A DNA stretch of 64,000 bases from positions 310,001 through 374,000 of the forward strand of contig AZIN01000001.1 of NCBI GenBank assembly GCA_000511875.1. Direction: 5' to 3'. Both the position numbers and the translations under genes were made by a program. Below the pieces are notes generated by a model, which saw only the letters and a list, made by a program, of their open reading frames with translations, was not told the origin of the DNA and searched no databases. Below are positions 302-64,000 of this stretch, in pieces. Source of the DNA: Gammaproteobacteria bacterium MOLA455 (GTDB lineage: Bacteria > Pseudomonadota > Gammaproteobacteria > Pseudomonadales > Porticoccaceae). The number at the start of each line of letters is the position of its first letter. Position 1 is the stretch's first letter.

Positions 302-480
302 GCTCGCAACAACTTAAGCTTGAGCCATAGCGCGGTCTGAACCGCTGCTGGTTCAACTATTAGTGTTAACCAGTTCGCACAATTCACGCCAGCCGGTTGC
401 GGTACTTTGGCCAGAGCATAAAATCGCCACAATCGTAATCAATAAGTGTTGGCATGGAGCTGACAGGGAGCTTAAACGGA

Positions 481-46881: not shown

Positions 46882-47517
46882 TCAACCTTGCTCTATGCGA
46901 CAGCCAAACTCCCCACCGGCATCCAATAACCACTGGGCCAGATAATCAGCAAAACTGCGCCTAATCACCAGGTCATAGGAGCCATCCGACCTGTTACTAA
47001 CCGCCGCCGAGGCCTTGGCAAAGGTAGTTTGCACCACTGACCCAGAGTTTGCCGTAGCCCCATCCCAGCCTTCAAAATCATAAACGCTGGATTTTTTCAG
47101 CACCGTGGCAGCAGCAGTACCGCGCAAATTAATGCAGGTCTGGCCACCACTGACATCAACAATCGAAATATGGCCCGTTAAAGATTCCCTCAATGCCGCT
47201 TCCAGGCTGGCTGGATCAGCGCCCTCTTGCACAATCAGCCACTCACTGGGCCCCAGCCAATAAATACTGCTACCGCCATTGCGCTGATAAGTGCCAGGTT
47301 GCAATGGCAACGACACATCCAAGACCTCAGCTACTGCAGCACAAAAGTTGCGGTCATTGGCATCCCCACGCAAATTCAAGTGGGCACTGAGGGGCGCTTC
47401 TTTAATCACCAAATCACAGTCGACTTGATTGTTAAATAGACTGTCTGAGGCACTGCTTTTATTGAATGATCCGTGAAAATAATTCAGCGGCGATTCAACC
47501 TTAATGGCATTAGACAT
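46882..47517 (-). CDS. soxG: Sarcosine oxidase subunit gamma
   Basis: A 211-residue subunit from ATG 47517, whose first eight bases overlap the end of soxA; the frame is open 14 codons further but those lie deep in soxA. It shows the gamma-family segments VESPLNYFHG at the start, LQPGTYQRNGGSSIYWLGPSEWLIV in the middle (a GcvT-like fold) and DVSGGQTCINLRG. The C-terminal half carries VVQTTFAKASAAV and ends with RSFADYLAQWLLDA. It is required for the assembled alpha-beta-gamma-delta enzyme although it has no cofactor. Last gene of soxBDAG. Confidence 0.9.
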   Translation of the reverse strand: MSNAIKVESPLNYFHGSFNKSSASDSLFNNQVDCDLVIKEAPLSAHLNLRGDANDRNFCAAVAEVLDVSLPLQPGTYQRNGGSSIYWLGPSEWLIVQEGADPASLEAALRESLTGHISIVDVSGGQTCINLRGTAAATVLKKSSVYDFEGWDGATANSGSVVQTTFAKASAAVSNRSDGSYDLVIRRSFADYLAQWLLDAGGEFGCRIEQG

Positions 47518-50512
47518 GGTGACGCTCTCCCTTGGGATCGTAAAACACCGAACTGACAATTTCTGCTGCTATAGTGTGGCCATCGGCCAAGGGGCAATGG
47601 ACTATCTGTCCGAGTCGACTATGGCCCCCTTTGACCACCGCGAGAGCGATGGCATGACCCAAATTGGCACTGTAATAGCTCGAGGTCACATGACCCTGCA
47701 TGGACATAGGAATTGCCTGTTTGGCATCGAACACAACCTGTGCCCCCTCGGGCAACACAGTTTTGGCCTCAAGGGTTTTGAGTCCCACCAGCTGCTTGCG
47801 ATTTTCCCGCAACATATCGCTGCGCCGAAGAGATCGCTTGCCAATAAAACTAAAGGTTTTTTTCTTGCCCACCACCCAATCCATATTCATATCCGCGGGG
47901 GTCATGGAGCCGTCTGTGTCTTGACCAACAATAATAAAGCCCTTCTCGGCACGCAGTATATGCATGGTTTCGGTGCCGTAGGGGGTGATATCAAATTCTT
48001 CACCGGCGGCTATTAACGCCTCCCAAACATGGCGACCATAATGGGCTGGCACATTGACTTCGTAGCACAGTTCACCGGTAAAGCTAATACGGAAAACTCT
48101 CGCCTTAATACCCGCCACAGTGCCATCCCGCCAATCCATAAACGGGAATGCCTCATTGGACAGGTCTATGTCGCTACAGACCTTGGCAATCACCTTGCGC
48201 GCATTGGGCCCGGTAACAGTGGCCGTGGTCCAGTGATCAGTAACCGAGGTAAAATACACCTGCAACTCTGGCCACTCTGTTTGCTGCCAGAGTTCGAGCC
48301 ATGCCAATACCCCAGCGGCACCGCCAGTAGTGGTAAACATCAAATAATGATTGTCTCCCAGACAGGCGCAAACACCGTCATCGAAAATCATGCCATCTTC
48401 CTTGAGCATCACCCCGTAGCGACATTTGCCCGGAGCTAATTTTAGATAGGAATTGCTGTATATGCGGCTAATAAACTCGGCGGCATCCGGGCCCTGAATA
48501 TCAATCTTGCCCAGGGTCGTGGCATCCAAAATACCCACACTGTTGCGCACTGCGAGGCCCTCCCGGTCAACCGCATCCTGCATGCTCTCGCCCTGATGCG
48601 GGAAGTACCAAGGGCGCTTCCACTGGCCGACATTTTCAAACTCGGCACCCTGCTCCATATGCCAGCGATGCATAGCGGTATAGCGTTCAGGGTCAAATAG
48701 ATTATTCACGTCACGCCCAGCGATAGCGCCAAACGTGGTTGGCGTGTAAGAGGGACGGAAAATTGTGGTGCCGGTCTCAGCAATACTCTGATTCAGCGCA
48801 TTAGCCAAAATAGCCATACCGTTAATATTGCCCAGCTTGCCCTGATCTGTGCCAAAACCGAGCGCGGTGTAACGCTTCACATGCTCAACCGATTCAAAGC
48901 CTTCACGGACTGCAAGCTCAATCGCACTGGCACTGACATCCAACTGGAAATCGACAAATTGGCTCGGCGCTCGGCTGGTACTTTTAGAATGAGGCACCAA
49001 AAAAAGTGCCTGCTGTGGCTGCTCTTCAAACGCCTCAACAGCGCACATGGGGAATTGAGTACTGCCCTCTCCGTGACCAGAGCAATTAGCTGCATCGGCG
49101 CCGGCAGTAGCACCCTCAGCCAGACAGCCCGCGAGATCAAAAGTGCCTCTGCAGGCTCCAGCAGAACGTTCCTGCTGCTTTGACTCTCCAGGTCTAAAGC
49201 CAACAATATTCTCATCCCATACCGGTTTGGCGCCTGTATGAGAACTCAAGTGAATCGCTGGACTCCAGCCACCAGAACAGGCGATCAAGTCGCAGTCTAG
49301 AACTCTCACCGCACCGATCACTTCAGTGCCAGCCTCATTGATCGGCGCAATCAGGGCGCGCTTAACGCGCTTGTTACCCTGAGCTTCTATAACGCCATGG
49401 CCAGCAATCACATCTATACCCAGGGCTTTCACTGCGACCACCATGTCGCCGCATGGATCTCTGCGTGTATCTATGACTGCAACCACGTCGCGACCAGTCT
49501 GATGCCAATCTAAGGCAGTTTGATAGGCATTGTCATTGGTGGTGAAAAGCACTAGCTTATTGCCGGGAGCCACGCCATAGCGATTGACATAGGTGGACAC
49601 TGACGAGGCCAGCATAACACCGGGAATATCGTTGTGGGCAAACACCAGGGGGCGCTCAAAGGCGCCGGTTGCCAGGACTACCTGAGCCGCTCTAACTCTG
49701 TGCATGCGCTGACGCACCTGATGAGCCGAGGTCAATCCCAGATGATCTGTGCGGCGCTCTAAAATGGTTAAAAAGTTGTGGTCGTAATAGCCAAATACAG
49801 TGCTTCGCGGCAGCATCTGGACATTGCTATAGGCCCCGAGTTCAGCCACCAGACTGGCGACCCAATCCCTGGCGATAAGTCCATCAATAGACTGCTTTGA
49901 GGCCAGCAAGCTGCCGCCAAACTCAGACTGCTCGTCAGCAATAATAACTCGTGCGCCAGTGCGTGCGGCTTCACGGGCAGCGACTAAACCTGCCGGACCT
50001 GCTCCCACCACTAGCACATCACAGTGCTGATTAAGTCGGTCATAGCTGTCGGGATCGTCTTTCACTGGGGTAGCACCCAAGCCTGCGGCCTTGCGAATAA
50101 AATGCTCGTAAGTCATCCAGAGCTTTTTGGGGTACATAAAGGTTTTGTAATAAAACCCCGGTGGCATCAGCCGACCAAAGGCGCCGATTATGCCCATAAT
50201 ATCGACGTCGACACTGGGCCAGCCATTGACACTGAATGCTTCAAGACCCTGATAGAGCTCTACCTGAGTGGCCTTAAGATTGGGCACAGTCCCGGCCCCT
50301 GAGCCCAGCTGAATAATACCATTGGGCTCTTCGGCACCATGGCCAAAGATTCCTCGCGGTCGGGCATATTTAAAACTGCGACCCACCACATCAACCCCAT
50401 TGGCTAGAAGTGCAGAGGCCAATGTGTCACCGGCGATGCCCTTTAGGGCTCTGCCATTAAAGGTAAAATCAATAGTGGCTCCGGTATGAGTCGGCAAACG
50501 ATTAGCGCTCAT
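47510..50512 (-). CDS. soxA: Sarcosine oxidase subunit alpha
   Basis: The 1000-residue large subunit of heterotetrameric sarcosine oxidase. Residues 1-100 form the 2Fe-2S-ferredoxin-like domain (IDFTFNGRALKGIAGDTLASAL), which lacks a cluster in known members. The NAD-binding domain has VLVVGAGPAGLVAAREAA at 167-184. The C-terminal third (about 610-990) is the GcvT-like tetrahydrofolate domain (EHVG-type start AVRNSVGILDATTLGKIDI, later GELCYEVNVPAHYG). The enzyme oxidises sarcosine to glycine and passes the C1 unit to tetrahydrofolate as methylene-THF, with H2O2 formed. Overlaps soxD by four bases. Confidence 0.96.
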   Translation of the reverse strand: MSANRLPTHTGATIDFTFNGRALKGIAGDTLASALLANGVDVVGRSFKYARPRGIFGHGAEEPNGIIQLGSGAGTVPNLKATQVELYQGLEAFSVNGWPSVDVDIMGIIGAFGRLMPPGFYYKTFMYPKKLWMTYEHFIRKAAGLGATPVKDDPDSYDRLNQHCDVLVVGAGPAGLVAAREAARTGARVIIADEQSEFGGSLLASKQSIDGLIARDWVASLVAELGAYSNVQMLPRSTVFGYYDHNFLTILERRTDHLGLTSAHQVRQRMHRVRAAQVVLATGAFERPLVFAHNDIPGVMLASSVSTYVNRYGVAPGNKLVLFTTNDNAYQTALDWHQTGRDVVAVIDTRRDPCGDMVVAVKALGIDVIAGHGVIEAQGNKRVKRALIAPINEAGTEVIGAVRVLDCDLIACSGGWSPAIHLSSHTGAKPVWDENIVGFRPGESKQQERSAGACRGTFDLAGCLAEGATAGADAANCSGHGEGSTQFPMCAVEAFEEQPQQALFLVPHSKSTSRAPSQFVDFQLDVSASAIELAVREGFESVEHVKRYTALGFGTDQGKLGNINGMAILANALNQSIAETGTTIFRPSYTPTTFGAIAGRDVNNLFDPERYTAMHRWHMEQGAEFENVGQWKRPWYFPHQGESMQDAVDREGLAVRNSVGILDATTLGKIDIQGPDAAEFISRIYSNSYLKLAPGKCRYGVMLKEDGMIFDDGVCACLGDNHYLMFTTTGGAAGVLAWLELWQQTEWPELQVYFTSVTDHWTTATVTGPNARKVIAKVCSDIDLSNEAFPFMDWRDGTVAGIKARVFRISFTGELCYEVNVPAHYGRHVWEALIAAGEEFDITPYGTETMHILRAEKGFIIVGQDTDGSMTPADMNMDWVVGKKKTFSFIGKRSLRRSDMLRENRKQLVGLKTLEAKTVLPEGAQVVFDAKQAIPMSMQGHVTSSYYSANLGHAIALAVVKGGHSRLGQIVHCPLADGHTIAAEIVSSVFYDPKGERHHV

Positions 50513-50842: not shown

Positions 50843-52093
50843 TTAATGAGCCACGCCAGCAGCGCCATGTTCATCGATCAGCGCGCCGCTATTAAAACGG
50901 TCGATAGTAAATGCCGCTGCCAGCGGATGAGGACGATCATTGGCCACGGTGTCAGCAAACACATAGCCAGACCCTGGGGTCGCCTTAAAGCCGCCAGTGC
51001 CCCAGCCACAATTAAAGTAGAGCCCGTCGACAGAAGTCTTACTGATAATTGGGCAGGCATCCGGACAGGTATCGACAATGCCGCCCCACTGGCGATTCAT
51101 GCGTACCCGACTAAAGGCGGGAAACAGTTCGCAGATGGCTTGAATAGTATGTTCAACAACATGAAAAGAACCGCGCTGACCATAGCCGTTGTAATTGTCG
51201 ACGCCGGCACCAATTACTAGATCCCCTTTGTCGGACTGACTAATATAACCGTGTACCGCGTTAGACATCACCACTGTATCTAGGCAGGGTTTAACTGGTT
51301 CAGATACTAAGGCCTGCAATGGCCGCGACTCTACCGGCAATCGCAAACCCGCCATGGCCGCCACCACACTTGAATTACCGGCGGTCACAGAGGCCACTTT
51401 ACGCGCACCTATAAAGCCTCCGGTAGTTTCAACACCGACTACAGCACCGTCTTTGCGACGGATACCTGTGACTTCAGTTTGCTGAATCAAATCTACACCC
51501 AGGGCATCTGCACCACGGGCATAGCCCCAGGCCACGGCGTCGTGACGGGCAGTGCCGCCGCGAGGCTGCCACGAGGCGCCCAGTATCGGATAGCGACTGT
51601 CAGAGGAAATATTGATTAATGGCGCGATCTCTTTAATGCGCTCGGGGCTAACCACTTCGCCATCTATGCCATTGAGACGATTGGCATTAACCCGCCGCTC
51701 TATATCGCGCATGTCCTGGAGGTTGTGGCCCAGATTGAGTACCCCACGCTGACTGAACATGACATTGTAATTAAGCTCTTGGCTCAAACCCTCCCACAGC
51801 TTTAACGACAGATCATAGAGCTGCGCCGCTTCATCCCAGAGATAATTGGATCGAATAATGGTGGTGTTTCGGGCTGTATTGCCACCACCCAAGTAGCCTT
51901 TTTCGATCACCGCAATATTGGTAACACCATGGACTTTGGCCAAATAGTAGGCCGTGGCTAACCCATGTCCACCGCCGCCCACAACAATCACGTCGTACTC
52001 TTTTTTCGGAGTGGGACTGCGCCAGACTTTCTGCCAGTTTTCGTGATAACTCAGTGCATTTTTGAAGAGGCTGAAGGCGGAATATTTTTTCAT
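50843..52093 (-). CDS. soxB: Sarcosine oxidase subunit beta
   Basis: The 416-residue flavoprotein subunit carries covalent FMN and FAD in known enzymes and oxidises sarcosine. The dinucleotide motif [20 protein letters not shown] lies at about 33-52. The SoxB start ([11 protein letters not shown]), [14 protein letters not shown], the histidine-containing [19 protein letters not shown] and the closing [17 protein letters not shown] agree with heterotetrameric SoxB. I chose the ATG at 52093; the frame extends to a TTG at 52111. It is the first gene of the sox operon, divergent from the regulator at 52319. Confidence 0.95.
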
Positions 52094-52138
52094 TATTATT
52101 GGTCTACCCAATAGCGATTAACAGCTGACATTGGAGCA

Positions 52139-52318: not shown

Positions 52319-53296
52319 ATGTCTAAAAAAGCCAACCAACATAAAACATCTCCAAGCTTATCGGTGGGCTTCGTGCTTATGCCGAGCTTTACTCTGCTGC
52401 CCTTTTCCGCCTTTCTTGATGCGCTTCGTTTGGCTGCAGATGAGGGGGATCAGAGCCAGCAAGTAAACTGTCAATGGACAGTAATGGGGCCCAACCTTGA
52501 GCCGATTTCTTCCAGCTCTGGGGTCCAGGTTAAGCCCTGGGAAACCTATCGCGATCCAGAGGAGTTTAACTACATAGTGGTGGTCGGTGGACTACTGCAA
52601 AAAACTCTGCATGGCAGCCAGCATGTGATCGATTATTTACAACAGGCAGACCGCGCCCATGTGCCGATTGTGGGCCTCTGCACAGGCTCCTTCGCGATGA
52701 TTCGTGCCGGACTAATGGATCGGCGCCGCTGTTGTGTCAGCTGGTTTCACTACAAGGATCTCGCCGACCATTACAGCGAGGTTATTCCGGTGGCAGAGCA
52801 GCTATTTGTCGACGATGGCGATCGCATTACCTGCGCCGGTGGTGCAGTGGCAGCGGACCTTGCGGGCTATATTATCGAGCGTCATCTGGGACAGAGCTGG
52901 GCACGCAAAAGTCTACGTATTCTACAGATGGATAATCCGCGCCCGGCCAATGCGCCGCAGCCGCAACCGGCATCGGATTACCCAGTCGATAACAAGTGGG
53001 TTGCACGGGCTCTATTACTGCTCGAACAAAATCTTAGTCGACCTCTCTCTACAGATGAAATTGCCCAGCGACTGAGTATTTCAAAACGCCAACTTGAGCG
53101 TTTATTTATCAGTGAAACCGGTGATAGCTTACAAAAGTTTTATCGCAAGATTCGCCTCAATTATGGGCTTTGGCTACTGCAGAATACTCAACGGTTAATC
53201 ACCGACATTGCTCAGGAAACTGGCTTCGCTGATACAGCTCATTTCTCTCGTGCGTTTCGCGCGAATTTTGCTAAGAAACCTACAGAATGTCGTTGA
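52319..53296 (+). CDS. GlxA-type AraC-family transcriptional regulator A
   Basis: The 325-residue regulator has a DJ-1/PfpI-like domain at about 15-190 (SVGFVLMPSFTLLPF, VVGGLLQKTL, VGLCTGSFAMIRAGL, ITCAGGAVAADLAGY). A C-terminal AraC helix-turn-helix pair follows at about 220-320 (PLSTDEIAQRLSISKRQLERLF and ITDIAQETGFADTAHFSRAF). Relatives such as GbdR and CdhR sense glycine betaine, dimethylglycine or carnitine and switch on their catabolism. It is divergent from soxB, which points to control of the sox operon. The ligand is not known. Confidence 0.9.
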   Translation: MSKKANQHKTSPSLSVGFVLMPSFTLLPFSAFLDALRLAADEGDQSQQVNCQWTVMGPNLEPISSSSGVQVKPWETYRDPEEFNYIVVVGGLLQKTLHGSQHVIDYLQQADRAHVPIVGLCTGSFAMIRAGLMDRRRCCVSWFHYKDLADHYSEVIPVAEQLFVDDGDRITCAGGAVAADLAGYIIERHLGQSWARKSLRILQMDNPRPANAPQPQPASDYPVDNKWVARALLLLEQNLSRPLSTDEIAQRLSISKRQLERLFISETGDSLQKFYRKIRLNYGLWLLQNTQRLITDIAQETGFADTAHFSRAFRANFAKKPTECR

Positions 53297-54483: not shown

Positions 54484-56520
54484 TTAGCGCCGTCGACGCT
54501 TTCTGCCTCCAGCGTTATCCACAACCTCTTTTACTGCAGGTCTAGTTACCAGAGAAAATAGATTAGGAAAGGGATCGGTTTTGTTGGGAAAGGCCATAGC
54601 ATCGACAAAATAATTCTGAAATTTTGGCTCGAGCGCGGTTTCAATTTTTTCAATATTTTTAACTAGGGTTTCAATTACATCGCGAGACTGACGGTTTAAC
54701 AGGGCAATACGTGCACCGGTTCCCGCGGCATTGCCCGCAGAGGAAACCTCATCTAATACACAGTCGGGAATAAGACCCAAGACCATGGCATGTTGCACAT
54801 TAATATGACTGCCAAAGGCCCCAGCCAAACGAATACGCTCGACCCTGTCAGTACCAATATGATCCATCAATAATTTTACACCGGCATAGAGGGCGGCTTT
54901 GGCCAACTGAATTTGGCGGATATCATTTTGTGTTACCAGAATCTGGGCTTCATCGCTTACAGGAGAGTGCAGAACGTAGCACCAGGTACGATCGTTTTGC
55001 ACCATTCTATCGGTGCGATTAACCAGCTCACCGTTGACAATACCGTCCACAGTCACTATGCCGGCCAGATACATCTCGGCCACCACTTCAATAATACCCG
55101 AACCGCAGATACCGGTGACGCCATGACTCTCAATCGCGGCACTAAAGCCCTCTTCGTCAGACCAGAGGTCGGAGCCGATCACTTTAAAGCGTGGCTCCAA
55201 CGTTTCTGGGTTTATCCGCACTCGCTCAATAGCGCCAATCGCGGCGCGTTGACCGCAACTAATTTGGGCTCCTTCAAAGGCTGGCCCTGTGGGACTGGAG
55301 CAGGCCAGTAGGCGCTGGCGATTGCCCAGTACAATTTCTGCATTGGTGCCCACATCCACCAGCAAGGTCATCTGATCCTGTTCCTGAGGCTCTTCCGAGA
55401 GAATCATGCCGGCGGTATCGGCGCCCACATGGCCTGCGATGCAGGGCAAAATATAGATTCGTCCACCGGGATTAATCCTTAGTTCCAACTCCGCAGCTGG
55501 CACTTCAACGGCGCCGTCAGTGGCCAGGGCAAAGGGTGCTCCGCCCAACTCCACTGGGCTAATGCCGAGTAGGATATGATGCATTATCGGGTTGGCCACC
55601 AGGGTAATTTCGAGAATATCCTCAACCCTGCCGTCGATTGTCTCGGCCACTTCTGCAAAAAGACTGTTTAATGCCGCGCGGATCACCAGGGTCATTTCGT
55701 CCGCCCCTTCCGGGTACATCATCACGTAGGATACGCGACTCATTAAGTCTTCGCCAAAGCGAATCTGCGGGTTCATCAAACTGGCACTGGCCAACACGTC
55801 GCCACTGGAGAGATCACAGAGATGAGCGGCGATGGTGGTTGAGCCCACGTCTACAGCTACGCCATAGGCTCTATCGCGAAAGCCGGGCCAGAGGGCAATA
55901 ATTTGTCGACTGTTATAGACCGCCACTGTGACAGCGCGTTTACCTTTTGCGAGAACCGGCTGTAATGTTTTCAGTAGCCGATTGTCACAGCTCAGGTTGG
56001 GCAACTGCCACTGACCCTCAAGGGCCTCGATAAGGCGCTGCGCATCCCCTATGGGCACATGCATATCCGCCTCATCAACCTGCACATAGTAGAGCCGTAT
56101 CGCCGGATCGAGATGGATATCTCGGTACTCCGCGTGTTTGCGCACAATCTGTCTGTGCACCTGGCTTTCCGCTGGCACATCAATCACCACATCGTCGAGC
56201 AATAATGTATGACAGCTTAGGCGACGGCCATTGGCGAGAGCTGTTTTGCGTTCGCCATATTTTATTTCTGTGGCGCAAACCGGCGACAGATGACTACTCT
56301 GTGAGTCGATTTGGTGCTTCGGAAACGACCCTTCGGCACAGATAATTTGACAGCGACCACAGAGGCCGCGACCACCGCAGACTGAATCAATATCCACGCC
56401 CAACACTCGCGCTGCATGTAACAGCGGCGTATTAACCGGAAAGCTGCCGCGACGTCCAGAGGGTGTAAAAACCACCTTCACCTGAGCAACCGTTTTATCC
56501 GTTTTGTCGATAGGATCCAC
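54484..56520 (-). CDS. ASKHA/2Fe-2S corrinoid-activating protein (RACo/RamQ-like, DUF4445)
   Basis: The 678 residues begin with a plant-type 2Fe-2S domain at about 10-115 (VCGGRGLCGRC, with the last cysteine in RLSCHT). A linker follows, then an acetate/sugar kinase-Hsc70-actin fold with AVDVGSTTIAAHLCD near 225 and LLVDVGTNAEIVLG near 390, and GICGSGIIEVVAEM and RIRLAGAFGSHIN. Such proteins (RACo, RamQ) use ATP to re-reduce Co(II) corrinoid that has been oxidised by accident, restoring Co(I). It lies six bases after the methyl-THF methyltransferase gene. The C-terminus is a basic tail (GGRKRRRR). Confidence 0.9.
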   Translation of the reverse strand: MDPIDKTDKTVAQVKVVFTPSGRRGSFPVNTPLLHAARVLGVDIDSVCGGRGLCGRCQIICAEGSFPKHQIDSQSSHLSPVCATEIKYGERKTALANGRRLSCHTLLLDDVVIDVPAESQVHRQIVRKHAEYRDIHLDPAIRLYYVQVDEADMHVPIGDAQRLIEALEGQWQLPNLSCDNRLLKTLQPVLAKGKRAVTVAVYNSRQIIALWPGFRDRAYGVAVDVGSTTIAAHLCDLSSGDVLASASLMNPQIRFGEDLMSRVSYVMMYPEGADEMTLVIRAALNSLFAEVAETIDGRVEDILEITLVANPIMHHILLGISPVELGGAPFALATDGAVEVPAAELELRINPGGRIYILPCIAGHVGADTAGMILSEEPQEQDQMTLLVDVGTNAEIVLGNRQRLLACSSPTGPAFEGAQISCGQRAAIGAIERVRINPETLEPRFKVIGSDLWSDEEGFSAAIESHGVTGICGSGIIEVVAEMYLAGIVTVDGIVNGELVNRTDRMVQNDRTWCYVLHSPVSDEAQILVTQNDIRQIQLAKAALYAGVKLLMDHIGTDRVERIRLAGAFGSHINVQHAMVLGLIPDCVLDEVSSAGNAAGTGARIALLNRQSRDVIETLVKNIEKIETALEPKFQNYFVDAMAFPNKTDPFPNLFSLVTRPAVKEVVDNAGGRKRRRR

Positions 56521-56526
56521 AGCTAT

Positions 56527-57420
56527 CTAGGCCCTTTTTCTACGGCCACCACGAACCCGACCTTCCCCTTCGGGAGCCGGTTCGCGATAGGCTTTAATCC
56601 AGTTGGCACAGTTGGGATCATTGCCCATCATCACGTCGCCACCGCGCACTGCCGCCATCACTTCTGCGTGCAGCGGGCTGGTGATAGCGGAGGTCATTCC
56701 CGCGCCCATTGCCATCGTTAAAAAAGCACTGTTAATGCCATTGCGATTGGGCAGTCCAAAGCTGACATTGGATGCGCCACAGGTGGTGTTCACTTTAAGC
56801 TCTTCTCGGAGGCGACGCACTATATGCATCACCTGCAGACCGGCGGTATTAACCGCGCCAATCGGCATAACCAAGGGATCAACAATCACATCGCTGAAGG
56901 GAATACCGTAATCCGCAGCCCGTTCGATAATCTTTTTGGCCACGTCAAAACGCTCATTGGGATCTTCTGAGATGCCAGTTTCGTCGTTGGATATAGCGAC
57001 CACGGCAGCACCGTATTTGGCCACCAGAGGCAGCACTCGCTCCAATACTTCGTCTTCGCCGGTTACAGAGTTGACCAAGGCTTTACCCTGATAGACCGCA
57101 AGACCGGCTTCCAGTGCTTCGATAATCGAGGAGTCGATGCTCAGGGGCACATCACTAATCGACTGCACTAGCTGAATGGCTTCAGCCAAAATACGTGGCT
57201 CGTCGGCCAGCGGAATACCAGCGTTAATGTCCAGCATCTGCGCACCAGCAGCAATCTGAGCCAGGGCATCGGCTTCGACGCGGCTATAGTCACCGACTTT
57301 CATTTCGGCGGCGAGAATTTTCCGCCCGGTAGGATTTATGCGTTCGCCAATAATGACAAAGGGCTGATCAAAGCCGATTTTGACTTCTCGCGTGGCGGAA
57401 CTAATCGTCGTAATGGTCAT
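56527..57420 (-). CDS. Methyl-corrinoid:tetrahydrofolate methyltransferase (MtgA/AcsE-like)
   Basis: The 297-residue pterin-binding TIM barrel (dihydropteroate-synthase-like) has GERINPTGRK near residue 24 and DINAGIPLADEP near 67, followed by LSIDSSIIEALEAGL and LVNSVTGED. The THF-contact segment AAVVAISNDETG and NTTCGASNVSFGLPNRN complete the set. Relatives AcsE and MtgA move a methyl group between corrinoid protein and tetrahydrofolate. In this operon it should take the methyl from the corrinoid protein and give 5-methyl-THF. I chose ATG 57420 with GGAG six bases upstream. The C-terminus is Arg/Gly-rich (GRVRGGRRKRA). Confidence 0.9.
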   Translation of the reverse strand: MTITTISSATREVKIGFDQPFVIIGERINPTGRKILAAEMKVGDYSRVEADALAQIAAGAQMLDINAGIPLADEPRILAEAIQLVQSISDVPLSIDSSIIEALEAGLAVYQGKALVNSVTGEDEVLERVLPLVAKYGAAVVAISNDETGISEDPNERFDVAKKIIERAADYGIPFSDVIVDPLVMPIGAVNTAGLQVMHIVRRLREELKVNTTCGASNVSFGLPNRNGINSAFLTMAMGAGMTSAITSPLHAEVMAAVRGGDVMMGNDPNCANWIKAYREPAPEGEGRVRGGRRKRA

Positions 57421-57435
57421 GCCGTTCTCCAAAAA

Positions 57436-58422
57436 TTATTGTTGTGGCCGCCAGGGGGTTCGACCTCCCAGCACCTGTGTTTTTTCTACAATTTCAGCGA
57501 TCCGCTCTTCCTGACGATAGGCCATAATATGCACCCCGCTAACACCTTCAATCTGGCGAATCTCACTGATCATATCGATGCAAATATTGACCCCTTCCTG
57601 CTTCTGATCTTGGGCGCCGGCTAGGCGTTTAATAATCCCATCTGGAATATGCACACCGGCGACATTATTGCGGATCCATTCGGCAGACTTGGCCGATGCT
57701 AACGGGCCGACACCGGGCAAAATAAAGACTTTTTTATGCAGCCCCAAATCGCGAACTTTCGCCATATAGGTCTTGAGCATGTCGATATCAAAGCAGTACT
57801 GGGTCTGAATAAACTGAGCACCAGCAGCGACCTTTTTGGCCAGTCGCAGAGGACGATAATCAAACGGCGGCGCAAAGGGATTGGCCGCCGCACCTAAAAA
57901 TACCGGTGGTGGCGAAGCGATTTTTCGGCCACTGAGAAATTGGCCCTGGTCGCGCATACCTTTGAGCATTTGCAGGCTGGTCATACAGTCCATATCAAAT
58001 ACCGGTTTCGCCTCTGGATGGTCGCCAGACTGCACTCCGTCACCGGTTAAGCAGAGAATATTGGATACGCCCATGGCCGAGGCGCCGAGCACATCTCCCT
58101 GTATGGCAATGCGGTTTTTATCGCGACAGGAGATCTGCATAATCATCGAGTAGCCGCGACGTGTTAACAGCGCACACATACCGACACTGGACATATGGCA
58201 GTTGGCACCGGAGCCATCGGTGGCATTAATCGCATCCACATAGCCATCAAATTGCGCGGCGCGATCAAACACGTCTTGAGGGTCAGCGGAGTCCGGTGGT
58301 GCTATCTCTGCTGTCACGGCAAAGTGACCGGCGCGCAACACGCGTTCAAAGCGACCGGGGGAATCGTGCCCCGGCAGCATTGGCAGGTTCTCGCCCGCGA
58401 GGGGTTCGTCCTCAAACATCAC
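57436..58422 (-). CDS. Methylenetetrahydrofolate reductase, MetF-like
   Basis: A 328-residue TIM-barrel flavoprotein of the MTHFR family. FAVTAEIAPPDSADPQDVF near residue 35, CRDKNRIAIQGDVLGASAMG, LCLTGDGVQSGDHPEAK, FIQTQYCFDIDMLKTYM and LPGVGPLASAKSAEWI are the MetF-type motifs (flavin and folate contacts). In this cluster the useful direction is oxidation of 5-methyl-THF to methylene-THF, which would feed serine and formate or CO2 formation. It overlaps the cysteine-rich metV-like gene by four bases, the MetF-MetV pairing of acetogens, rather than a stand-alone biosynthetic metF. No gene symbol is assigned because the role differs from methionine synthesis. Confidence 0.9.
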   Translation of the reverse strand: MMFEDEPLAGENLPMLPGHDSPGRFERVLRAGHFAVTAEIAPPDSADPQDVFDRAAQFDGYVDAINATDGSGANCHMSSVGMCALLTRRGYSMIMQISCRDKNRIAIQGDVLGASAMGVSNILCLTGDGVQSGDHPEAKPVFDMDCMTSLQMLKGMRDQGQFLSGRKIASPPPVFLGAAANPFAPPFDYRPLRLAKKVAAGAQFIQTQYCFDIDMLKTYMAKVRDLGLHKKVFILPGVGPLASAKSAEWIRNNVAGVHIPDGIIKRLAGAQDQKQEGVNICIDMISEIRQIEGVSGVHIMAYRQEERIAEIVEKTQVLGGRTPWRPQQ

Positions 58423-58889
58423 AATGTCTCTCTCCCTGCCGCACTCAATTTTTTACGCACAGCACGGAGCCAGGCACTGGTGCCTTTAAGCCGCACATCC
58501 ACAGGAGCTTGAATCACCTGAATAGTGGACTCTAGATCACCAACCCGCTTGCTGCCCTCCCAGGAGGTCACCCAGACGCAGAGCATGCTCGCGTCAACCT
58601 CACAGTTACCGTTACTACGGACGCCCCCACAGGGACCATTACGGAGGGTTTTCGGGCAGTTCATAGGACAGGCCATACCGGTTTCGCCGAGAGTGCACTG
58701 ACCACAGGATTGCGAGTCGAACAAAAAGCCCTTGATGTATTTTTCAATCGCGGCAAAACCACGATCAAGGCGCTGATAGCCGAGACGGTTAAAGATAGGA
58801 TGCAGTGCCATCAGGCCCCTTTCTAGTCCCTGATAGATGCAGCGCAACCAACGGGCATTCTCAACCGACCAGTAGCGAACCCTTTTCAA
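58419..58889 (-). CDS. MetV-like cysteine-rich MTHFR partner (MTHFR_C domain)
   Basis: The 156-residue protein has the MTHFR_C cysteine pattern: SCGQCTLGETGMACPMNCPK, then NGPCGGVRSNGNCEV and MLCVW, about nine cysteines in all. Such proteins, called MetV in acetogens, form a complex with MetF and are thought to carry iron-sulfur clusters or zinc for electron transfer. Here it lies next to metF with four-base overlaps on both sides, so the three genes are translationally coupled. The N-terminal half (Trp/Tyr/Arg-rich) is unlike the usual MetV and is about 70 residues long. Confidence 0.8.
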   Translation of the reverse strand: MKRVRYWSVENARWLRCIYQGLERGLMALHPIFNRLGYQRLDRGFAAIEKYIKGFLFDSQSCGQCTLGETGMACPMNCPKTLRNGPCGGVRSNGNCEVDASMLCVWVTSWEGSKRVGDLESTIQVIQAPVDVRLKGTSAWLRAVRKKLSAAGRETL

Positions 58890-59194
58890 GCGCTCGCTAC
58901 CCTGAGGCCCTTGGCCGCGACTAGCTGCTTAATATCGGCATCCGAATAAGCGGCTTCGACAGCGTCGGCAAACTGTTGCGCCAACGCCTGGGGACTGCCC
59001 TCGCCTTCGATTGTACTGGTGACACGGCGCCAGTCTTGCAAATAGTCGTCACTGCTACCTTTGCCGGCACGCATAGCGGCGCGATCGATGGCGGCCTGAA
59101 AACGATGAGTCAGAAGCACCTTGCCACGGACTCGGCCACTTTTGACCAGAATCTGAGCTGGGATGTCGCGCCAAAATACTTCAATTTTTTGCAT
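58886..59194 (-). CDS. PF13769-type (virulence factor domain) protein in methyltransferase operon
   Basis: The 102-residue protein starts MQKIEVFWRDIPAQILVK and contains RGKVLLTHRFQAAIDRAAMR and DYLQDWRR, which I recognise as the small domain called Virulence_fact. The name is historical and gives no function. It overlaps the metV-like gene by four bases and follows the DUF1638 gene by 59 bases. Its place in the run argues for a role in corrinoid or C1 transfer, but nothing in the sequence shows a catalytic site or metal motif. Confidence 0.75.
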   Translation of the reverse strand: MQKIEVFWRDIPAQILVKSGRVRGKVLLTHRFQAAIDRAAMRAGKGSSDDYLQDWRRVTSTIEGEGSPQALAQQFADAVEAAYSDADIKQLVAAKGLRVASA

Positions 59195-59253
59195 CCGGTT
59201 TCTCTCTTTACAGGACCTTTACAGACGCTCTTTAATGGCGCTGTTTTTTATTT

Positions 59254-59892
59254 TTATAGCATTTTAAGAATCTGTTTTTGAAGACTTTTCTCTAGATCTC
59301 CATAACCAGTTTGCTCATGACGAAAGTCCAAGCCTAAAAATTCTGCCGCTGCCTTTGCTCGAACCAGCAGGCCAGAGTCCTCTCGCTGCGACAGATACAC
59401 CACCAACTTGTAGTTGCCGAAGAATTGATGCCGAAGCTCTGGATGGCTATCCAGTTTTAACCCTCTAATCACCAATCGATCAAAGTGCTCAACCAAAAAA
59501 TCGGTCAAATAAAAAGTCCCTAACTCCGCTTCGGCAATCTCAGTAAAGCGCGCTTCGCCTGCATAAAAGGCATAACAGTGAGCACCGGGCAGTCGCTCCA
59601 CAGAGTCTCCAGCCTCTGCCAAAACTCGATCAATCTCACCACCGCTACCGCAGTCGCCATAGGCCACAAAAATACGCTCATAATGACTGCGATGTTGAGC
59701 AATTTTTTCGCGCAATTTCTGCGGGATTTTTTTCGGCCTGTTATGTAACTCGGCATTCAAACATTGCAGGTCAATCGCGTCCCATCCATTGAGCTTTTGC
59801 AGCCAGACTATCTCGCGAGCCAGAGCACCGCAGGCAATCACCAATAACTTTTCCGCTACGCCGGAGTCTGTTATTAGACTGCCTGCAGTCAT
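59254..59892 (-). CDS. DUF1638 protein
   Basis: A 212-residue protein with the DUF1638 segments LLVIACGALAREI near the start, LQCLNAELHNRPKKIPQKLRE, IFVAYGDCGSGGEID (with a cysteine-glycine core) and HCYAFYAGEARF. The family is found near MttB-type methyltransferases and corrinoid proteins in bacteria and archaea. Function unknown; the conserved Cys and His residues suggest metal or corrinoid handling (inference). It begins with ATG overlapping the corrinoid protein stop (TAATG). Confidence 0.85.
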   Translation of the reverse strand: MTAGSLITDSGVAEKLLVIACGALAREIVWLQKLNGWDAIDLQCLNAELHNRPKKIPQKLREKIAQHRSHYERIFVAYGDCGSGGEIDRVLAEAGDSVERLPGAHCYAFYAGEARFTEIAEAELGTFYLTDFLVEHFDRLVIRGLKLDSHPELRHQFFGNYKLVVYLSQREDSGLLVRAKAAAEFLGLDFRHEQTGYGDLEKSLQKQILKML

Positions 59893-60590
59893 TAGGCGGC
59901 CTCTAAAGCTCTGCGCTCCTGAACCAAACGAATCGCTGTGGTGGCTGCGTCCGCCGCATCGCGACAGTAGGCATCAGCGCCTACCGCAGTGCCAAATTCT
60001 TCATTCAGCGGCGCACCGCCGACCATCACAATATATTTATCTCGCAGGCCCTGATCTTTTAACGCATCAATCACTACCTTCATGTATGGCATAGTGGTTG
60101 TGAGCAGCGCGGACATGCCCAAAATATCGGGTTTGTGGCGTTCTAGCGCAGCGATATATTCTTCGACACTATTGTTGATACCCATATCGTGCACTTCGAA
60201 ACCTGCGCCTTCCATCATCATCGCCACTAAGTTTTTGCCGATATCATGGATATCGCCTTTTACCGTGCCAATCACCATGGTGCCAACGGGCTTGGCCCCG
60301 GTCTCAGCTAAAAGCGGTTTGAGAATGCTCATGCCACCTTTCATGGCGTTAGCCGCCAGCAGTACTTCCGGGACAAACAAAATGCCGTCGCGAAAATCTA
60401 CACCCACTACGGTCATACCGTCCACCAGAGCCTCACCTAAGACGCGCTCTGGAGACCAGCCTCGATCCAAGAGAATCTGAGTGCCCTCTTCGATCTCTTC
60501 TTTTAAGCCGTCGTAGAGATCGTCGTGCATCTGCAAAACCAGATCTGCATCGGATAACTCAGCTAGTACAATATCGTCTTCTTCAGACAT
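59892..60590 (-). CDS. Corrinoid (B12-binding) methyl-carrier protein, MttC/MtgC-like
   Basis: The 232-residue protein has the two-domain layout of methanogen/acetogen methyl carriers: a helical cap at about 10-105 (VLGEALVDGMTVVGVDFRDG, FVPEVLLAANAMKGGM) and a Rossmann B12-binding domain at about 110-225. The latter has the cobalt-ligand motif in VKGDIHDIGKNLV (DxHxxG) and later GMSALLTTTMPYM and MVGGAPLNEEFG. The histidine coordinates cobalt from below. It would accept the methyl group from the MttB-like enzyme. It follows that gene by 37 bases. Confidence 0.94.
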   Translation of the reverse strand: MSEEDDIVLAELSDADLVLQMHDDLYDGLKEEIEEGTQILLDRGWSPERVLGEALVDGMTVVGVDFRDGILFVPEVLLAANAMKGGMSILKPLLAETGAKPVGTMVIGTVKGDIHDIGKNLVAMMMEGAGFEVHDMGINNSVEEYIAALERHKPDILGMSALLTTTMPYMKVVIDALKDQGLRDKYIVMVGGAPLNEEFGTAVGADAYCRDAADAATTAIRLVQERRALEAA

Positions 60591-60627
60591 GATGTTTGTT
60601 CCTCAAAAATCCTGTTGTTAGACTTGC

Positions 60628-62181
60628 TTAATAGTCGCGATCGGCAAAAGAGCCTTTGCGACGGGCCATAAAATCAATCAATGCTTCATCAATCGCTGGG
60701 TCAAATGTCGGAGCCTGATAATCATTGAGCATCTTTTTCCACAGAACATTAGCGCGCTGGGCAGTGTCCAGAGAACCGTCTACCTGCCACTGCTCATAGC
60801 TATTATTATCAGCTACAGTGGAGCGGTAGAATGCGCTTTCAAAGTTCTTTAAGGTGTGGGCGGAACCAAGGTAATGTTTGCCGGGACCCACTTCGCGGAC
60901 AGCATCCAGAGCCTGGCCATTTTCAGACATATCCATACCCGACAGCAGCACTGAAATCATGCTCGCCTGATCGCAGTCCATAATAAATTTCTCATAACCC
61001 ATAGCCAGACCACCTTCTAACCAACCGGCGGTATGCAACATAAAGTGCACGCCGGCTAGGGCTGCGGTTTGCAACGTGTTGGCGGATTCATAGGCGGCCT
61101 GCGCATCGGGCAATTTGGAGCCGGTGAGACCACCTCCGCTTCTAAAGGGCACGCCCAGTCGCCGAGCCAATGCAGCAGCAGCGTAGATAATTTGGCTTGG
61201 CTCTGGAGTACCAAAGGTGGGAGCGCCGGTGGCCATAGATACGGCCGCGGCGAAGGTGCCAAAGATGACCGGGGCCCCGGGACGGCAGAGCTGAGTAAAG
61301 GCGATACCCGCCAGCGCTTCGGCCAATATCTGGGTCACAGTGCCAGCCGCAGTCACCGGAGACATGGCACCGGCAAGAATAAAGGGTGAGACGACTGTGG
61401 CCTGATTATTTCGCGCATAGACCTTGAGTGAGCCAAGCATGGTGGCATCATAAGTCATGGGTGAGTTGACGTTAATCAGGCTAGTGAGAACACAGTTTTG
61501 GTCGACAAATTCGTCACCAAATACCAGCTTGGCCATGTCCACAGTGTCTTGCGCGCGCTCGTGGTGGGTGACAGAGCCCATCAGAGGCTTGTCACTGTAT
61601 TTAAAGTGACTGTACACCATGTCGAAGTGGCGTTTATTAACCGGCAGATCCACTGGCTCACAGATAGTACCGCCGGAATGATGAATTCCCGGTGCCATAT
61701 AGGCCAGCTTTACAAAGTTTTGAAAGTCTTCAATGGTGGCGTAGCGGCGCCCCTTGTCTATATCGTGAACAAAGGGTGAGCCATAGGCGGGAACTAGGAC
61801 AGTGCGCTTGCCGCCAATAATGACGTTCCGCTCTGGATTGCGTGCGTGCTGAACGAATTCACTGGGTGCTGTGGCCTGAATAATTGAGCGACAGAGACCT
61901 TTGGGGAAATGCACGCGAGAGCCACGCACATCAGCGCCGGCTTCTTTCCACATAGCCAACGCCTCGGGATCATCGAGAAAATCTATGCCGATCTCTTCAA
62001 GCAAGATATCCGCGTTATCTTCAATCAGCTGCAGATTTTCTTCGCTGAGATAGTCAAAATAGGGAATTTTGCGCTCGATAAACGGCGCGGCTTTGACCAC
62101 GGCTTTGCCACGAGCTTCGCGGCGCCCATCGCGGCCACCACCCTCTCGACCTGCTCTTCTGCGCCCAGTTTTTTCAGTCAT
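60628..62181 (-). CDS. MttB-superfamily methyltransferase without pyrrolysine (glycine betaine-type candidate)
   Basis: The 517 residues from ATG 62181, with GGAAGAG upstream, begin with a basic Gly/Arg-rich leader (TEKTGRRRAGREGGGRDGRR). The MttB barrel follows, with ERKIPYFDYLSEENLQLIED, PAYGSPFVHDIDKGRR, GGTICEPVDLPVNKRHFD and GAPVIFGTFAAAVSMATGAPTFGTPE. The reading frame has no UAG; the stop is TAA, so this is not the pyrrolysine trimethylamine enzyme. Non-Pyl relatives include MtgB (glycine betaine), MtpB (proline betaine) and MtcB (carnitine). Dimethylglycine dehydrogenase-like and sarcosine oxidase genes nearby make glycine betaine the simplest substrate. Confidence 0.85.
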   Translation of the reverse strand: MTEKTGRRRAGREGGGRDGRREARGKAVVKAAPFIERKIPYFDYLSEENLQLIEDNADILLEEIGIDFLDDPEALAMWKEAGADVRGSRVHFPKGLCRSIIQATAPSEFVQHARNPERNVIIGGKRTVLVPAYGSPFVHDIDKGRRYATIEDFQNFVKLAYMAPGIHHSGGTICEPVDLPVNKRHFDMVYSHFKYSDKPLMGSVTHHERAQDTVDMAKLVFGDEFVDQNCVLTSLINVNSPMTYDATMLGSLKVYARNNQATVVSPFILAGAMSPVTAAGTVTQILAEALAGIAFTQLCRPGAPVIFGTFAAAVSMATGAPTFGTPEPSQIIYAAAALARRLGVPFRSGGGLTGSKLPDAQAAYESANTLQTAALAGVHFMLHTAGWLEGGLAMGYEKFIMDCDQASMISVLLSGMDMSENGQALDAVREVGPGKHYLGSAHTLKNFESAFYRSTVADNNSYEQWQVDGSLDTAQRANVLWKKMLNDYQAPTFDPAIDEALIDFMARRKGSFADRDY

Positions 62182-62309
62182 AATGGCTCTTCCGTTGGAG
62201 AATTTTTCTCGCTTTTGATGAATCTTTACTGATCGCATTCTGTGCCTGTTTAAGCACCGCCGCATCTGCTTTTGCGACCTGCAAATACCAGTTTGCGACG
62301 CAACTAAAA

Positions 62310-64000
62310 CTAACTTCGCAGGCAGCTATTTTCACCGTCAAAGGGAGACTCTTCGATCACGGTCACCGGATAGCGCTGACCCAGTATTTCAATCTCTAAT
62401 TCAGTGCCTATGGCACCGAAAGCGGCCTTGACCAATCCCAGCGCCAAAGACTTGTTGGTGCGAAAGCCAAAACCGCCAGATGTGGCACGACCGACCAGCA
62501 CACCATCTTTGTAGAGGCCTTCTGAACCTCGCGCATCGGCATCGGTGACGCCATGAACCTCAAGTGTGGCAAAGCAGTTATCAAAGCCCTTTTCCTGCCA
62601 GGCAATAAGCGCGTCTTTGCCGACAAAATCGCACTCTTTATCGAGTTTCACAAAACGCTCTAATCCGGATTCTAGTGCCGAGTACTCGATCGACATCTCA
62701 CGCGGAATCAAACGGTAGGATTTTTCGATACGCATACTGTCCAGAGCGCGAATACCAAAGGGCTTAATATTGAACTCAGCCCCCGCCTTCATCAGCTCAT
62801 CGAAGATATAGTTTTGCATTTCAATAGGATGGTGCAGCTCCCAACCCAGCTCGCCAACAAAGTTGACCCGCAGCGCCTCGGCCTGGGCATAGCCAATATT
62901 GATTGACTTGCCGGTGAGCCACTTAAAGTTCTCTTTCGACATATCAGTGTCAGTGAGTTTTTGCAGCAGATCTCGAGACTTGGGACCGGCGACGACCAAC
63001 ACTCCCATCTGGGTAGTGATTTTTTGCAGATTAACCGAGCCATCTCGCGGGGCTAACTTGGTTAAATAATCCCAATCGTGACGCTCTTGCGAACCGGCAA
63101 ACACCAGGTAATAACTATTTCTGGCGCGTTTATAAACCGTAAACTCGGCGCGCACACCACCGCTTTGAGAGAGCATATGGCAGAGACCGATGCGCCCTAC
63201 TGTCTTGGGAATGCTGTTCGCTAAAATGCTATTGAGCCAGGCCTCTGAACCATGGCCAGTGACTGTGCACTTAGAGAAGGCTGACATGTCCAACACGCCA
63301 ACATGCTCATTTACGTGACGGCATTCCTGGCCAACAAAATCGAAGTAGTTGGAGCGACGGAAGGAGTTTTTTTCCACAATACGGCCATCGGCCAGAGCAT
63401 TAGAGTGGTTTTTATTCCACAGGGTATCTGACTTATCCAGGTCCGCATGGGACAGGGAATATCCAGGAGGGGCAAACCAGTTAGGTCGCTCCCAGCCATA
63501 GACCGAGCCAAACACTGCACCCAGAGCTTTCATGCGATCGTAGCAAGGAGTGGTTTTTAACGGCCGCGCCGCACTGCGCTCTTCATCTGGATAGTGATTT
63601 TTAAACACATGGTCATAGGCTTCTTCATTTTTACTGCGCAGATAGCCTCGACTGGCGTAGGGACCAAAACGACGGGGGTCAACGCCCATCATATCCACAG
63701 TGGGTTCACCGTCGACAATCCACTCCGCCAGCTGCCAACCGGCACCGCCTGCTGCGGTAATACCAAAGCTGTGACCTTCATTGAGCCAAAGGTTCTTTAA
63801 ACCCCAGGCTGGCCCGACTATGGGATTGCCGTCTGGCGTATAGGCAATAGCTCCGTTGTAAACGGTTTTAACACCGACCTCGGCAAAGGCCGGAACCCTT
63901 GTCATACAGGCTTCAATATGGGGCATCAGGCGGTCGAGATCAGCATTGAACAGCTCGTATTCGGACTGATCGCTGGGACCATCCACATAGCAGCAGGGAG
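62310..64000 (-). CDS. Dimethylglycine/sarcosine dehydrogenase-like flavoprotein, C-terminal part
   Basis: The window shows the last 563 codons; the start lies beyond the right edge. The visible protein begins in the FAD-oxidoreductase C-terminal region (GNPIVGPAWGLKNLWLNEG, then SFGITAAGGAGWQLAEWI). Next come the FAO_M middle domain (RRFGPYASRGYLRSKNEE) and a GcvT-like folate-binding domain from about 215 (VGVLDMSAFSKCTVTG, GELGWELHHPIEMQNY, KPFGIRALDSMRIEKSY), ending with the GcvT C-terminal barrel. This order matches mammalian-type dimethylglycine and sarcosine dehydrogenases, usually over 800 residues, so about 260 are missing. It would demethylate dimethylglycine to sarcosine with C1 transfer to THF. 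Confidence 0.9.
   Translation of the reverse strand, partial: PCCYVDGPSDQSEYELFNADLDRLMPHIEACMTRVPAFAEVGVKTVYNGAIAYTPDGNPIVGPAWGLKNLWLNEGHSFGITAAGGAGWQLAEWIVDGEPTVDMMGVDPRRFGPYASRGYLRSKNEEAYDHVFKNHYPDEERSAARPLKTTPCYDRMKALGAVFGSVYGWERPNWFAPPGYSLSHADLDKSDTLWNKNHSNALADGRIVEKNSFRRSNYFDFVGQECRHVNEHVGVLDMSAFSKCTVTGHGSEAWLNSILANSIPKTVGRIGLCHMLSQSGGVRAEFTVYKRARNSYYLVFAGSQERHDWDYLTKLAPRDGSVNLQKITTQMGVLVVAGPKSRDLLQKLTDTDMSKENFKWLTGKSINIGYAQAEALRVNFVGELGWELHHPIEMQNYIFDELMKAGAEFNIKPFGIRALDSMRIEKSYRLIPREMSIEYSALESGLERFVKLDKECDFVGKDALIAWQEKGFDNCFATLEVHGVTDADARGSEGLYKDGVLVGRATSGGFGFRTNKSLALGLVKAAFGAIGTELEIEILGQRYPVTVIEESPFDGENSCLRS

What the first reader, a model, noticed from the sequence alone, without database searches (positions are those of the whole stretch)
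54484..64000. Corrinoid-dependent demethylation system in a respiring gammaproteobacterium
Seen: consecutive minus-strand genes for a non-Pyl MttB-type methyltransferase, a corrinoid carrier with the DIHDIG motif, a THF methyltransferase, MetF- and MetV-like proteins and an ASKHA/2Fe-2S activator, beside a dimethylglycine dehydrogenase-like protein and soxBDAG. Known: MtgB/MtgA-type systems demethylate glycine betaine in anaerobes, with RACo/RamQ-type proteins re-reducing the corrinoid. Inferred: a complete betaine-to-glycine route in which the first methyl is taken by cobalamin rather than by betaine-homocysteine methyltransferase, and all three methyls end up on tetrahydrofolate. An oxygen-exposed corrinoid would need constant reactivation, which explains the activator.
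Basis: partly seen in the sequence, partly recalled or inferred. Interest (0 to 1): 0.9.

Follow-up and report, generated by a model that had tools for sequence, protein, structure and literature searches.

The report
Vitamin-B12 betaine demethylation operon, marine bacterium
A marine SAR92-clade bacterium carries a gene set that very probably strips the first methyl group from the osmolyte glycine betaine with vitamin B12, a route already published for related sea bacteria; a small neighbouring protein mislabelled 'virulence factor' appears to be an overlooked part of it.

Summary
A nine-gene minus-strand operon (dimethylglycine dehydrogenase, mtgB, mtgC, DUF1638, PF13769, metV, metF2, mtgD, ramA) lies at 54484-64000 and runs past the window edge. 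A GbdR-like regulator and soxBDAG lie beside it. The genome is SAR92-clade (MtgC 98% identical to HTCC2207). No stand-alone betaine/homocysteine methyltransferase and no GbcA-grade oxygenase was found. The genome has a complete MetH with its own activation domain, so this copy looks dedicated to demethylation, unlike the dual-use set of R. pomeroyi. Beyond the papers seen: the 102-residue protein between DUF1638 and metV (Pfam 'Virulence_fact') occurs in the same 15 of 274 gammaproteobacterial genomes as MttB-type methyltransferases, and in 28 of 29 MttB-positive genomes among 299 Proteobacteria (22 of those 28 from two families). It stays when metVF is replaced by an unrelated reductase-like gene, and is absent from three RamA-corrinoid-DUF1638 genomes without MttB. 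It is probably an unrecognised component of the aerobic demethylase; one apparently complete operon lacks it.

The parts
62310..64000 (-). dimethylglycine dehydrogenase-like FAD oxidoreductase with GCV_T domains (3' part; gene continues beyond the window, 839 aa in all)
60628..62265 (-). mtgB: non-pyrrolysine MttB-superfamily quaternary amine:corrinoid methyltransferase; true start may be an internal ATG
   Evidence: PF06253 752.8 bits; phmmer hits 4yyc, 2qne and 9yce; trees; pocket residues
59892..60590 (-). mtgC: corrinoid carrier protein with DIHDIG
   Evidence: PF02310, PF02607; alignment A1
59254..59892 (-). DUF1638 protein, probable corrinoid reactivation partner; invariant C21, H50, C81, H105, C106
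   Evidence: PF07796; alignment A3; model pLDDT 94.1
58886..59194 (-). PF13769 'Virulence_fact' protein, 102 aa: proposed unrecognised component of the aerobic demethylase
58419..58889 (-). metV-like MTHFR C-terminal protein (DUF5981), 8 Cys
   Evidence: PF12225, Cys list
57436..58422 (-). metF2: methylenetetrahydrofolate reductase, proposed to oxidise methyl-THF
   Evidence: PF02219 132.8 bits
56527..57432 (-). mtgD: tetrahydrofolate:corrinoid methyltransferase (pterin-binding)
   Evidence: PF00809; NF005719 362.1 bits over cut-off 259
54484..56520 (-). ramA/RACo-like 2Fe-2S ASKHA corrinoid activase
   Evidence: PF14574, PF17651, PF17650, PF00111
53374..54357 (-). GbdR-like AraC/GlxA regulator, 126 bases downstream of ramA
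   Evidence: NF052371 438.7 bits, cut-off 480
52319..53296 (+). second AraC/GlxA-type regulator, between the GbdR-like gene and soxB
   Evidence: NF052371 177.6 bits, cut-off 480
50843..52111 (-). soxB, sarcosine oxidase beta
   Evidence: TIGR01373 723.6 bits
50509..50799 (-). soxD, sarcosine oxidase delta
   Evidence: TIGR01374 121.5 bits over 116.5
47510..50512 (-). soxA, sarcosine oxidase alpha
   Evidence: TIGR01372 1467.3 bits
46882..47559 (-). soxG, sarcosine oxidase gamma (below model cut-off)
   Evidence: TIGR01375 103.1 bits, cut-off 143.95

Best explanation
This is a betaine-induced catabolic operon of the aerobic MtgBCD type. MtgB takes one methyl from glycine betaine and puts it on cob(I)alamin held by MtgC, leaving dimethylglycine. 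MtgD moves the methyl from MtgC to tetrahydrofolate. MetF2 with MetV oxidises methyl-THF to methylene-THF. RamA and DUF1638 re-reduce corrinoid that slips to cob(II). The dehydrogenase and SoxBDAG then take dimethylglycine to glycine. Because the genome has a complete self-activating MetH and no MtgE, this MtgC/MtgD pair serves demethylation only, unlike the dual-use pair of R. pomeroyi. The PF13769 protein is most likely a small accessory of the MtgB-MtgC step or of corrinoid upkeep under oxygen. Shown here: genes, order, absence of the alternatives tested, co-occurrence. Shown by others in R. pomeroyi: need for MtgC and MtgD. Inferred: substrate, direction, induction, and the PF13769 role.
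For: Gene content and spacing. No stand-alone PF02574 protein; one complete MetH with activation domain. The three Rieske proteins found score 87-117 bits against the GbcA cut-off of 670. GbdR-like neighbour. Same operon in HTCC2207 and other SAR92/Porticoccaceae genomes with dehydrogenase and sox genes, some with another reductase in place of metVF. In Azoarcus sp. KH32C the operon sits near betaine ABC transporter, purU and ETF genes. MtgB belongs to a one-per-genome group: 13 of the 14 other gammaproteobacterial MttB genomes examined have exactly one scored row at least 65% identical to it, the next best being 57%. All 26 rows at least 62% identical to it, itself included, keep the Tyr, Asn, Arg and His proposed for betaine, while 25 of the 41 other rows have Ala, Ser, Gly, Thr or Cys in place of the Tyr. 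Genetics in R. pomeroyi.
Against: No activity or expression data here. The betaine-contacting residues come from docking in the cited paper, not from a bound structure; a fifth one (Phe353) is Gly here, and 7 less similar rows keep the same four residues. MtgC scores 199.8 and 169.0 bits against the anaerobic MtgC models (cut-offs 370 and 310), so it is not that family. The GbdR-like regulator is under its model's cut-off. The Azoarcus stretch has no mtgB. Direction of MetF2 is assumed. The PF13769 role rests on co-occurrence and position only; Bacillus subtilis has a PF13769 match without MttB and Methanosarcina acetivorans has MttB without PF13769 (controls); locus L104 has mtgC, DUF1638, mtgD, ramA and mtgB but its genome (G582) shows no PF13769 match.
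Confidence: 0.85

Rival explanations
1. The operon demethylates another quaternary or methylated compound (carnitine, choline, proline betaine, DMSP or similar) and betaine is not the main substrate.
For: MttB-superfamily members with other substrates are known, and most of the MttB-carrying genomes have several PF06253 genes. Phe353 of the betaine enzyme is Gly here.
Against: This genome has a single PF06253 gene, beside dimethylglycine and sarcosine genes and a GbdR-like regulator; it belongs to the one-per-genome group found in 13 of 14 other gammaproteobacterial MttB genomes.
Confidence: 0.12
2. MtgC and MtgD here also form a split methionine synthase, as in R. pomeroyi and Phaeobacter inhibens.
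For: Homologues do so by genetics.
Against: A complete MetH including activation domain lies about 28 kb away (1222 aa); no separate homocysteine-binding MtgE was found.
Confidence: 0.05
3. The PF13769 protein is an accessory of MetV/MetF2 (methyl-THF oxidation), not of the corrinoid step.
For: It overlaps metV by 4 bases in the window and is next to metV in S. meliloti and Azoarcus.
Against: Of 42 loci with PF13769 near mtgC, 20 have metF2, 9 have a hit to an unrelated MTHFR-like protein (6 of them in the same slot) and 13 have neither; some of those contigs are short.
Confidence: 0.2
4. The PF13769 gene is a passenger or regulator with no role in demethylation.
For: No biochemical evidence; no fold match in the PDB; genome G582 has the rest of the operon without a detectable PF13769.
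Against: Same 15 of 274 genomes as MttB; 28 of 29 MttB genomes in a second sample of 299; 36 of 38 genomes where it is not near mtgC still have it elsewhere.
Confidence: 0.15

Closest known systems
MtgBCD(E) of Ruegeria pomeroyi DSS-3 and relatives (Mausz et al. 2025, PMC12478193; text parts 1-4 of 6 read plus term searches; figures and supplements not seen)
   Same: PF06253 + corrinoid protein + pterin methyltransferase + MetF2 + RamA + DUF1638; co-located with later demethylation genes in marine Alpha-, Gamma- and Deltaproteobacteria
   Different: Here one operon, MetH present and MtgE absent, so apparently dedicated to demethylation (in the paper 28 of 239 metH genomes had mtgBCD); the words virulence, MetV, GbdR and SAR92 do not occur in its main text
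Split methionine synthase of Phaeobacter inhibens with RamA-like and DUF1638 proteins (Price et al. 2018, PMC5764234; passages read)
   Same: corrinoid protein, pterin protein, RamA-like and DUF1638 genes
   Different: No separate homocysteine-binding subunit here; MetH is there for that job; 'virulence factor' does not occur in its main text
MtgABC of Desulfitobacterium hafniense (structures 2qne, 9yce)
   Same: MttB superfamily; four proposed betaine residues conserved
   Different: Anaerobe; corrinoid protein of another subgroup
Betaine-homocysteine methyltransferase; betaine monooxygenase GbcAB
   Same: same net first demethylation
   Different: neither found in this genome

Membership tests
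Aerobic MtgBCD glycine betaine demethylase | PF06253 methyltransferase without in-frame pyrrolysine codon | tested here: met
   752.8 bits, no internal stop
Aerobic MtgBCD glycine betaine demethylase | separate corrinoid protein (PF02310/PF02607) and pterin methyltransferase (PF00809) | tested here: met
Aerobic MtgBCD glycine betaine demethylase | RamA-like and DUF1638 reactivation genes and a MetF paralogue | tested here: met
Aerobic MtgBCD glycine betaine demethylase | activity on glycine betaine | not testable with these tools
   indirect only:
Dual-function MtgBCDE (split methionine synthase) | stand-alone homocysteine-binding MtgE, MetH usually absent | tested here: not met
   single PF02574 protein is a complete MetH
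Anaerobic MtgC (NF047995/NF047996) | score over curated cut-off | tested here: not met
   169.0 vs 310 and 199.8 vs 370 bits
Betaine-homocysteine methyltransferase | stand-alone PF02574 protein | tested here: not met
   repeated
GbcAB betaine monooxygenase | GbcA over NF058607 cut-off 670 | tested here: not met
   three Rieske proteins at 107.7, 116.9, 87.2 bits
GbdR regulator | NF052371 over cut-off 480 | tested here: inconclusive
   438.7 bits, E 1.5e-131

The most novel reading that the evidence does not exclude
The Pfam family PF13769, named 'Virulence factor', is in Proteobacteria a dedicated small component of the oxygen-tolerant MttB-type corrinoid demethylases: a fold without a detected PDB match that lets MtgB hand methyls to, or keeps reduced, a corrinoid protein in respiring cells. 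It would be a piece that separates the aerobic from the anaerobic systems.
Probability: 0.5. Interest if true: 0.65.

Novelty: new member of a known kind. Interest (0 to 1): 0.45.

Why it matters
The operon puts the SAR92 clade among the marine bacteria with a probable B12-dependent betaine sink, with MetH kept apart, so the two roles that share subunits in R. pomeroyi can be studied separately. The PF13769 link turns a misleading 'virulence factor' label into a testable metabolic hypothesis covering many marine and rhizobial genomes, and bears on how a corrinoid demethylase works in air.

Tried and rejected
Fold searches gave no function: PF13769 model best Foldseek E 0.31; DUF1638 model best E 3.7e-3 with low TM-scores. 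Sequence searches of the PDB with PF13769, DUF1638 and MetV found nothing under E 0.4. A paper search for CvfC/YpgR/IPR025989, names I recalled for PF13769 proteins of Firmicutes, gave a listing in which I read nothing. A paper on SAR92 in an Antarctic polynya (PMC6383258, passages) defers betaine use to a supplement I did not see.

Rejected: betaine-homocysteine methyltransferase carrying the flux; GbcAB; dual use as methionine synthase; PF13769 as a MetVF subunit (weakened).

Counts and rows left out: the PF13769 match in G210 (20.9 bits, under cut-off, in a 632-aa frame; no MttB) is not counted among the 15. The phylum exception G351 has only a 57-bit MttB fragment, profile positions 1-73. 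The class and phylum samples share some genomes (at least G000, G007, G162, G272). Related genomes are not independent: 22 of the 28 positives of the phylum sample come from families f204 and f208. The chance values ignore this and are only a guide. DUF1638 alignment: 47 of 61 non-redundant rows (70 before reduction; one of 71, L097, skipped) plus the window. MttB rows: the first tree (58 rows) held 46 of the 56 matches listed; on checking I fetched the other ten and rebuilt it with 55 of 56, one 137-aa fragment left out (67 rows). In the first tree the window's clade (22 rows, 92/84) held G155 and G266; in the second (21 rows, 94/86) their rows fall just outside at an unresolved fork, and G195 is inside. 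Neither clade is strongly supported, so I rest the claim on identity. One search scored at most 5 candidates per genome, so paralogues are undercounted; G214 (5 of 13 scored) shows no close row. Twelve loci had MTHFR-like hits; six lie in the PF13769-mtgD slot (L044, L045, L047, L055, L083, L085).
Full report
What is there. The minus strand from beyond the window edge to 54484 carries nine genes with gaps of -4 to +59 bases: a dimethylglycine-dehydrogenase-like gene (839 aa in full), mtgB, mtgC, DUF1638, PF13769, metV, metF2, mtgD and ramA. A GbdR-like AraC regulator follows after 126 bases (438.7 bits, model cut-off 480). After a second regulator on the other strand comes soxBDAG. A formate-THF ligase gene starts divergently upstream of the dehydrogenase.

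Whose genome. The window lies in a 2.6-Mb genome, 97.8% complete. MtgC is 98% identical to that of strain HTCC2207 and of a Porticoccaceae MAG; that HTCC2207 belongs to the SAR92 clade is recalled. These relatives hold the same operon with the dehydrogenase upstream and sox genes downstream.

Which route. The genome's only PF02574 protein is a complete 1222-aa MetH with the B12 activation domain. No betaine-homocysteine methyltransferase and no MtgE was found. Among 16 MttB-carrying genomes searched with PF02574, this one and G349 had a single match, of MetH-like frame length (1230 and 1249 aa); G051 and G060 had a single short one, G195 (58% complete) none, and the other 11 two or more. Three Rieske oxygenases score 87-117 bits against the GbcA cut-off of 670. 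The genome has a single PF06253 gene. So the first demethylation, if it happens, most likely goes through MtgB-MtgC-MtgD. Transport and B12 synthesis genes were not examined.

Substrate. Of the 14 other gammaproteobacterial MttB genomes, 13 have exactly one scored row at least 65% identical to the window protein; the next best is 57%, and G214's best of five scored rows is 54%. In two trees these rows gather around the window protein, with modest support (92/84 and 94/86) and small differences in membership. Docking on the Desulfitobacterium enzyme proposed Tyr94, Asn199, Arg309 and His345 as betaine contacts (PMC6855144, passages read). All four are present here (Y161, N265, R375, H411) and in all 26 rows at least 62% identical to the window protein, itself included. 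Of the other 41 rows, 25 keep Asn, Arg and His but have Ala, Ser, Gly, Thr or Cys for the Tyr; 7 keep all four; one has Trp with Arg changed, one has His changed, two are truncated at the Tyr, and 5 distant rows keep none. Phe353 is Gly. On the Azoarcus sp. KH32C plasmid the same operon, with no mtgB in the 22 kb seen, lies among glycine betaine ABC transporter genes, purU, a GlxA-family regulator and an electron transfer flavoprotein gene.

What is known. Mausz et al. 2025 (PMC12478193; text parts 1-4 of 6 read) showed that R. pomeroyi mutants of mtgC and mtgD are methionine auxotrophs and do not grow on betaine even with methionine, proposed MetF2 as methyl-THF oxidase, and reported co-located mtgBCD genes, even operons, in marine Alpha-, Gamma- and Deltaproteobacteria. 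Price et al. [quoted passage not shown] The present operon is therefore a new member of a known kind, of the type with MetH kept.

What appears new: PF13769. In 274 gammaproteobacterial genomes PF13769 passes its cut-off in 15 and PF06253 in 15, and they are the same 15, from 11 families. DUF1638 is in 23, including those 15. In 299 Proteobacteria PF13769 is in 28 and PF06253 in 29, with 28 shared; the exception has an MttB fragment only. Those 28 come from 8 families, 22 of them from two. Of 16 PF13769 copies over the cut-off in the first sample, 14 lie beside DUF1638 and mtgC; of the other two, one follows a dehydrogenase-like gene. Of 80 mtgC loci 42 have it nearby; of the 38 genomes whose locus lacks it, 36 have it elsewhere and all 38 have MttB (completeness not told). 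The two without are G558 (1.4 Mb) and G582 (4.1 Mb); the G582 locus (L104) has the rest of the operon, so it is a real exception unless its PF13769 is too diverged or missing from the assembly. Three genomes with strong DUF1638 matches but no MttB (G249, G116, G213) have a RamA-like protein, a corrinoid protein and DUF1638 side by side, but no PF13769; in G249 the cluster also holds a URO-D family protein. So DUF1638 goes with RamA-corrinoid systems more widely, and PF13769 with the MttB type. PF13769 is kept when metVF is replaced: 20 of 80 loci have MetF2, 12 have a hit to an unrelated MTHFR-like protein, none has both. The AlphaFold model is confident (pLDDT 93.0) and has no PDB match (best Foldseek E 0.31). 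W8-R9-D10, P12, F32 and W55 are among nine invariant residues in 43 sequences. Controls: B. subtilis has PF13769 without MttB and M. acetivorans MttB without PF13769, so the link was seen in Proteobacteria (and beside mtgC in some Actinomycetota and Chloroflexi loci) and is not universal.

In print? A full-text search for PF13769 found no paper. 'Virulence' is absent from the Mausz main text and 'virulence factor' from Price 2018. A combined search listed seven of eight papers, none relevant by title and abstract start. Subscription papers, supplements and figures were not searched.

DUF1638. The model is confident (pLDDT 94.1) and C21, H50, C81, H105 and C106 are invariant in 48 sequences, which would suit a metal or redox site; this is inference, and no fold match supports it.

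Noticed in passing
L044:11725-12687, L045, L047, L055, L083 and the G051/G060/G190/G195 loci (L027, L033, L034, L029): metV-metF2 is replaced in the same operon slot by an unrelated MTHFR-like protein (Pfam MTHFR 19.7 bits, under cut-off), also inside the SAR92/Porticoccaceae group; MetF2 and this type never occur together in the 80 loci.
   Followed up: partly
L176:6263-10355 (G249), L177 (G116), L178 (G213): A different corrinoid cluster in Gammaproteobacteria: RamA-like protein, corrinoid protein and DUF1638, with a URO-D family protein seen in G249, there beside sensor kinase and GGDEF genes; no MttB match in these genomes.
   Followed up: partly
L175 (Azoarcus sp. KH32C plasmid pAZKH): The operon lies on a plasmid typed as mobilizable, among betaine transporter genes.
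   Followed up: no
window 59254-59892: DUF1638: five invariant Cys/His residues suggest a metal or redox site.
   Followed up: partly
L054 and L063 (genomes of 1.4-1.5 Mb): Small gammaproteobacterial genomes with mtgB-mtgC but no DUF1638 or PF13769 hit within 10 kb; one (G558) shows no PF13769 at all.
   Followed up: partly
L104 (G582): mtgC-DUF1638-mtgD-ramA with mtgB but no PF13769 in the locus or genome: the clearest exception to the co-occurrence.
   Followed up: no
window 454-1158: 234-aa plus-strand ORF without any Pfam match at E 1e-5.
   Followed up: no
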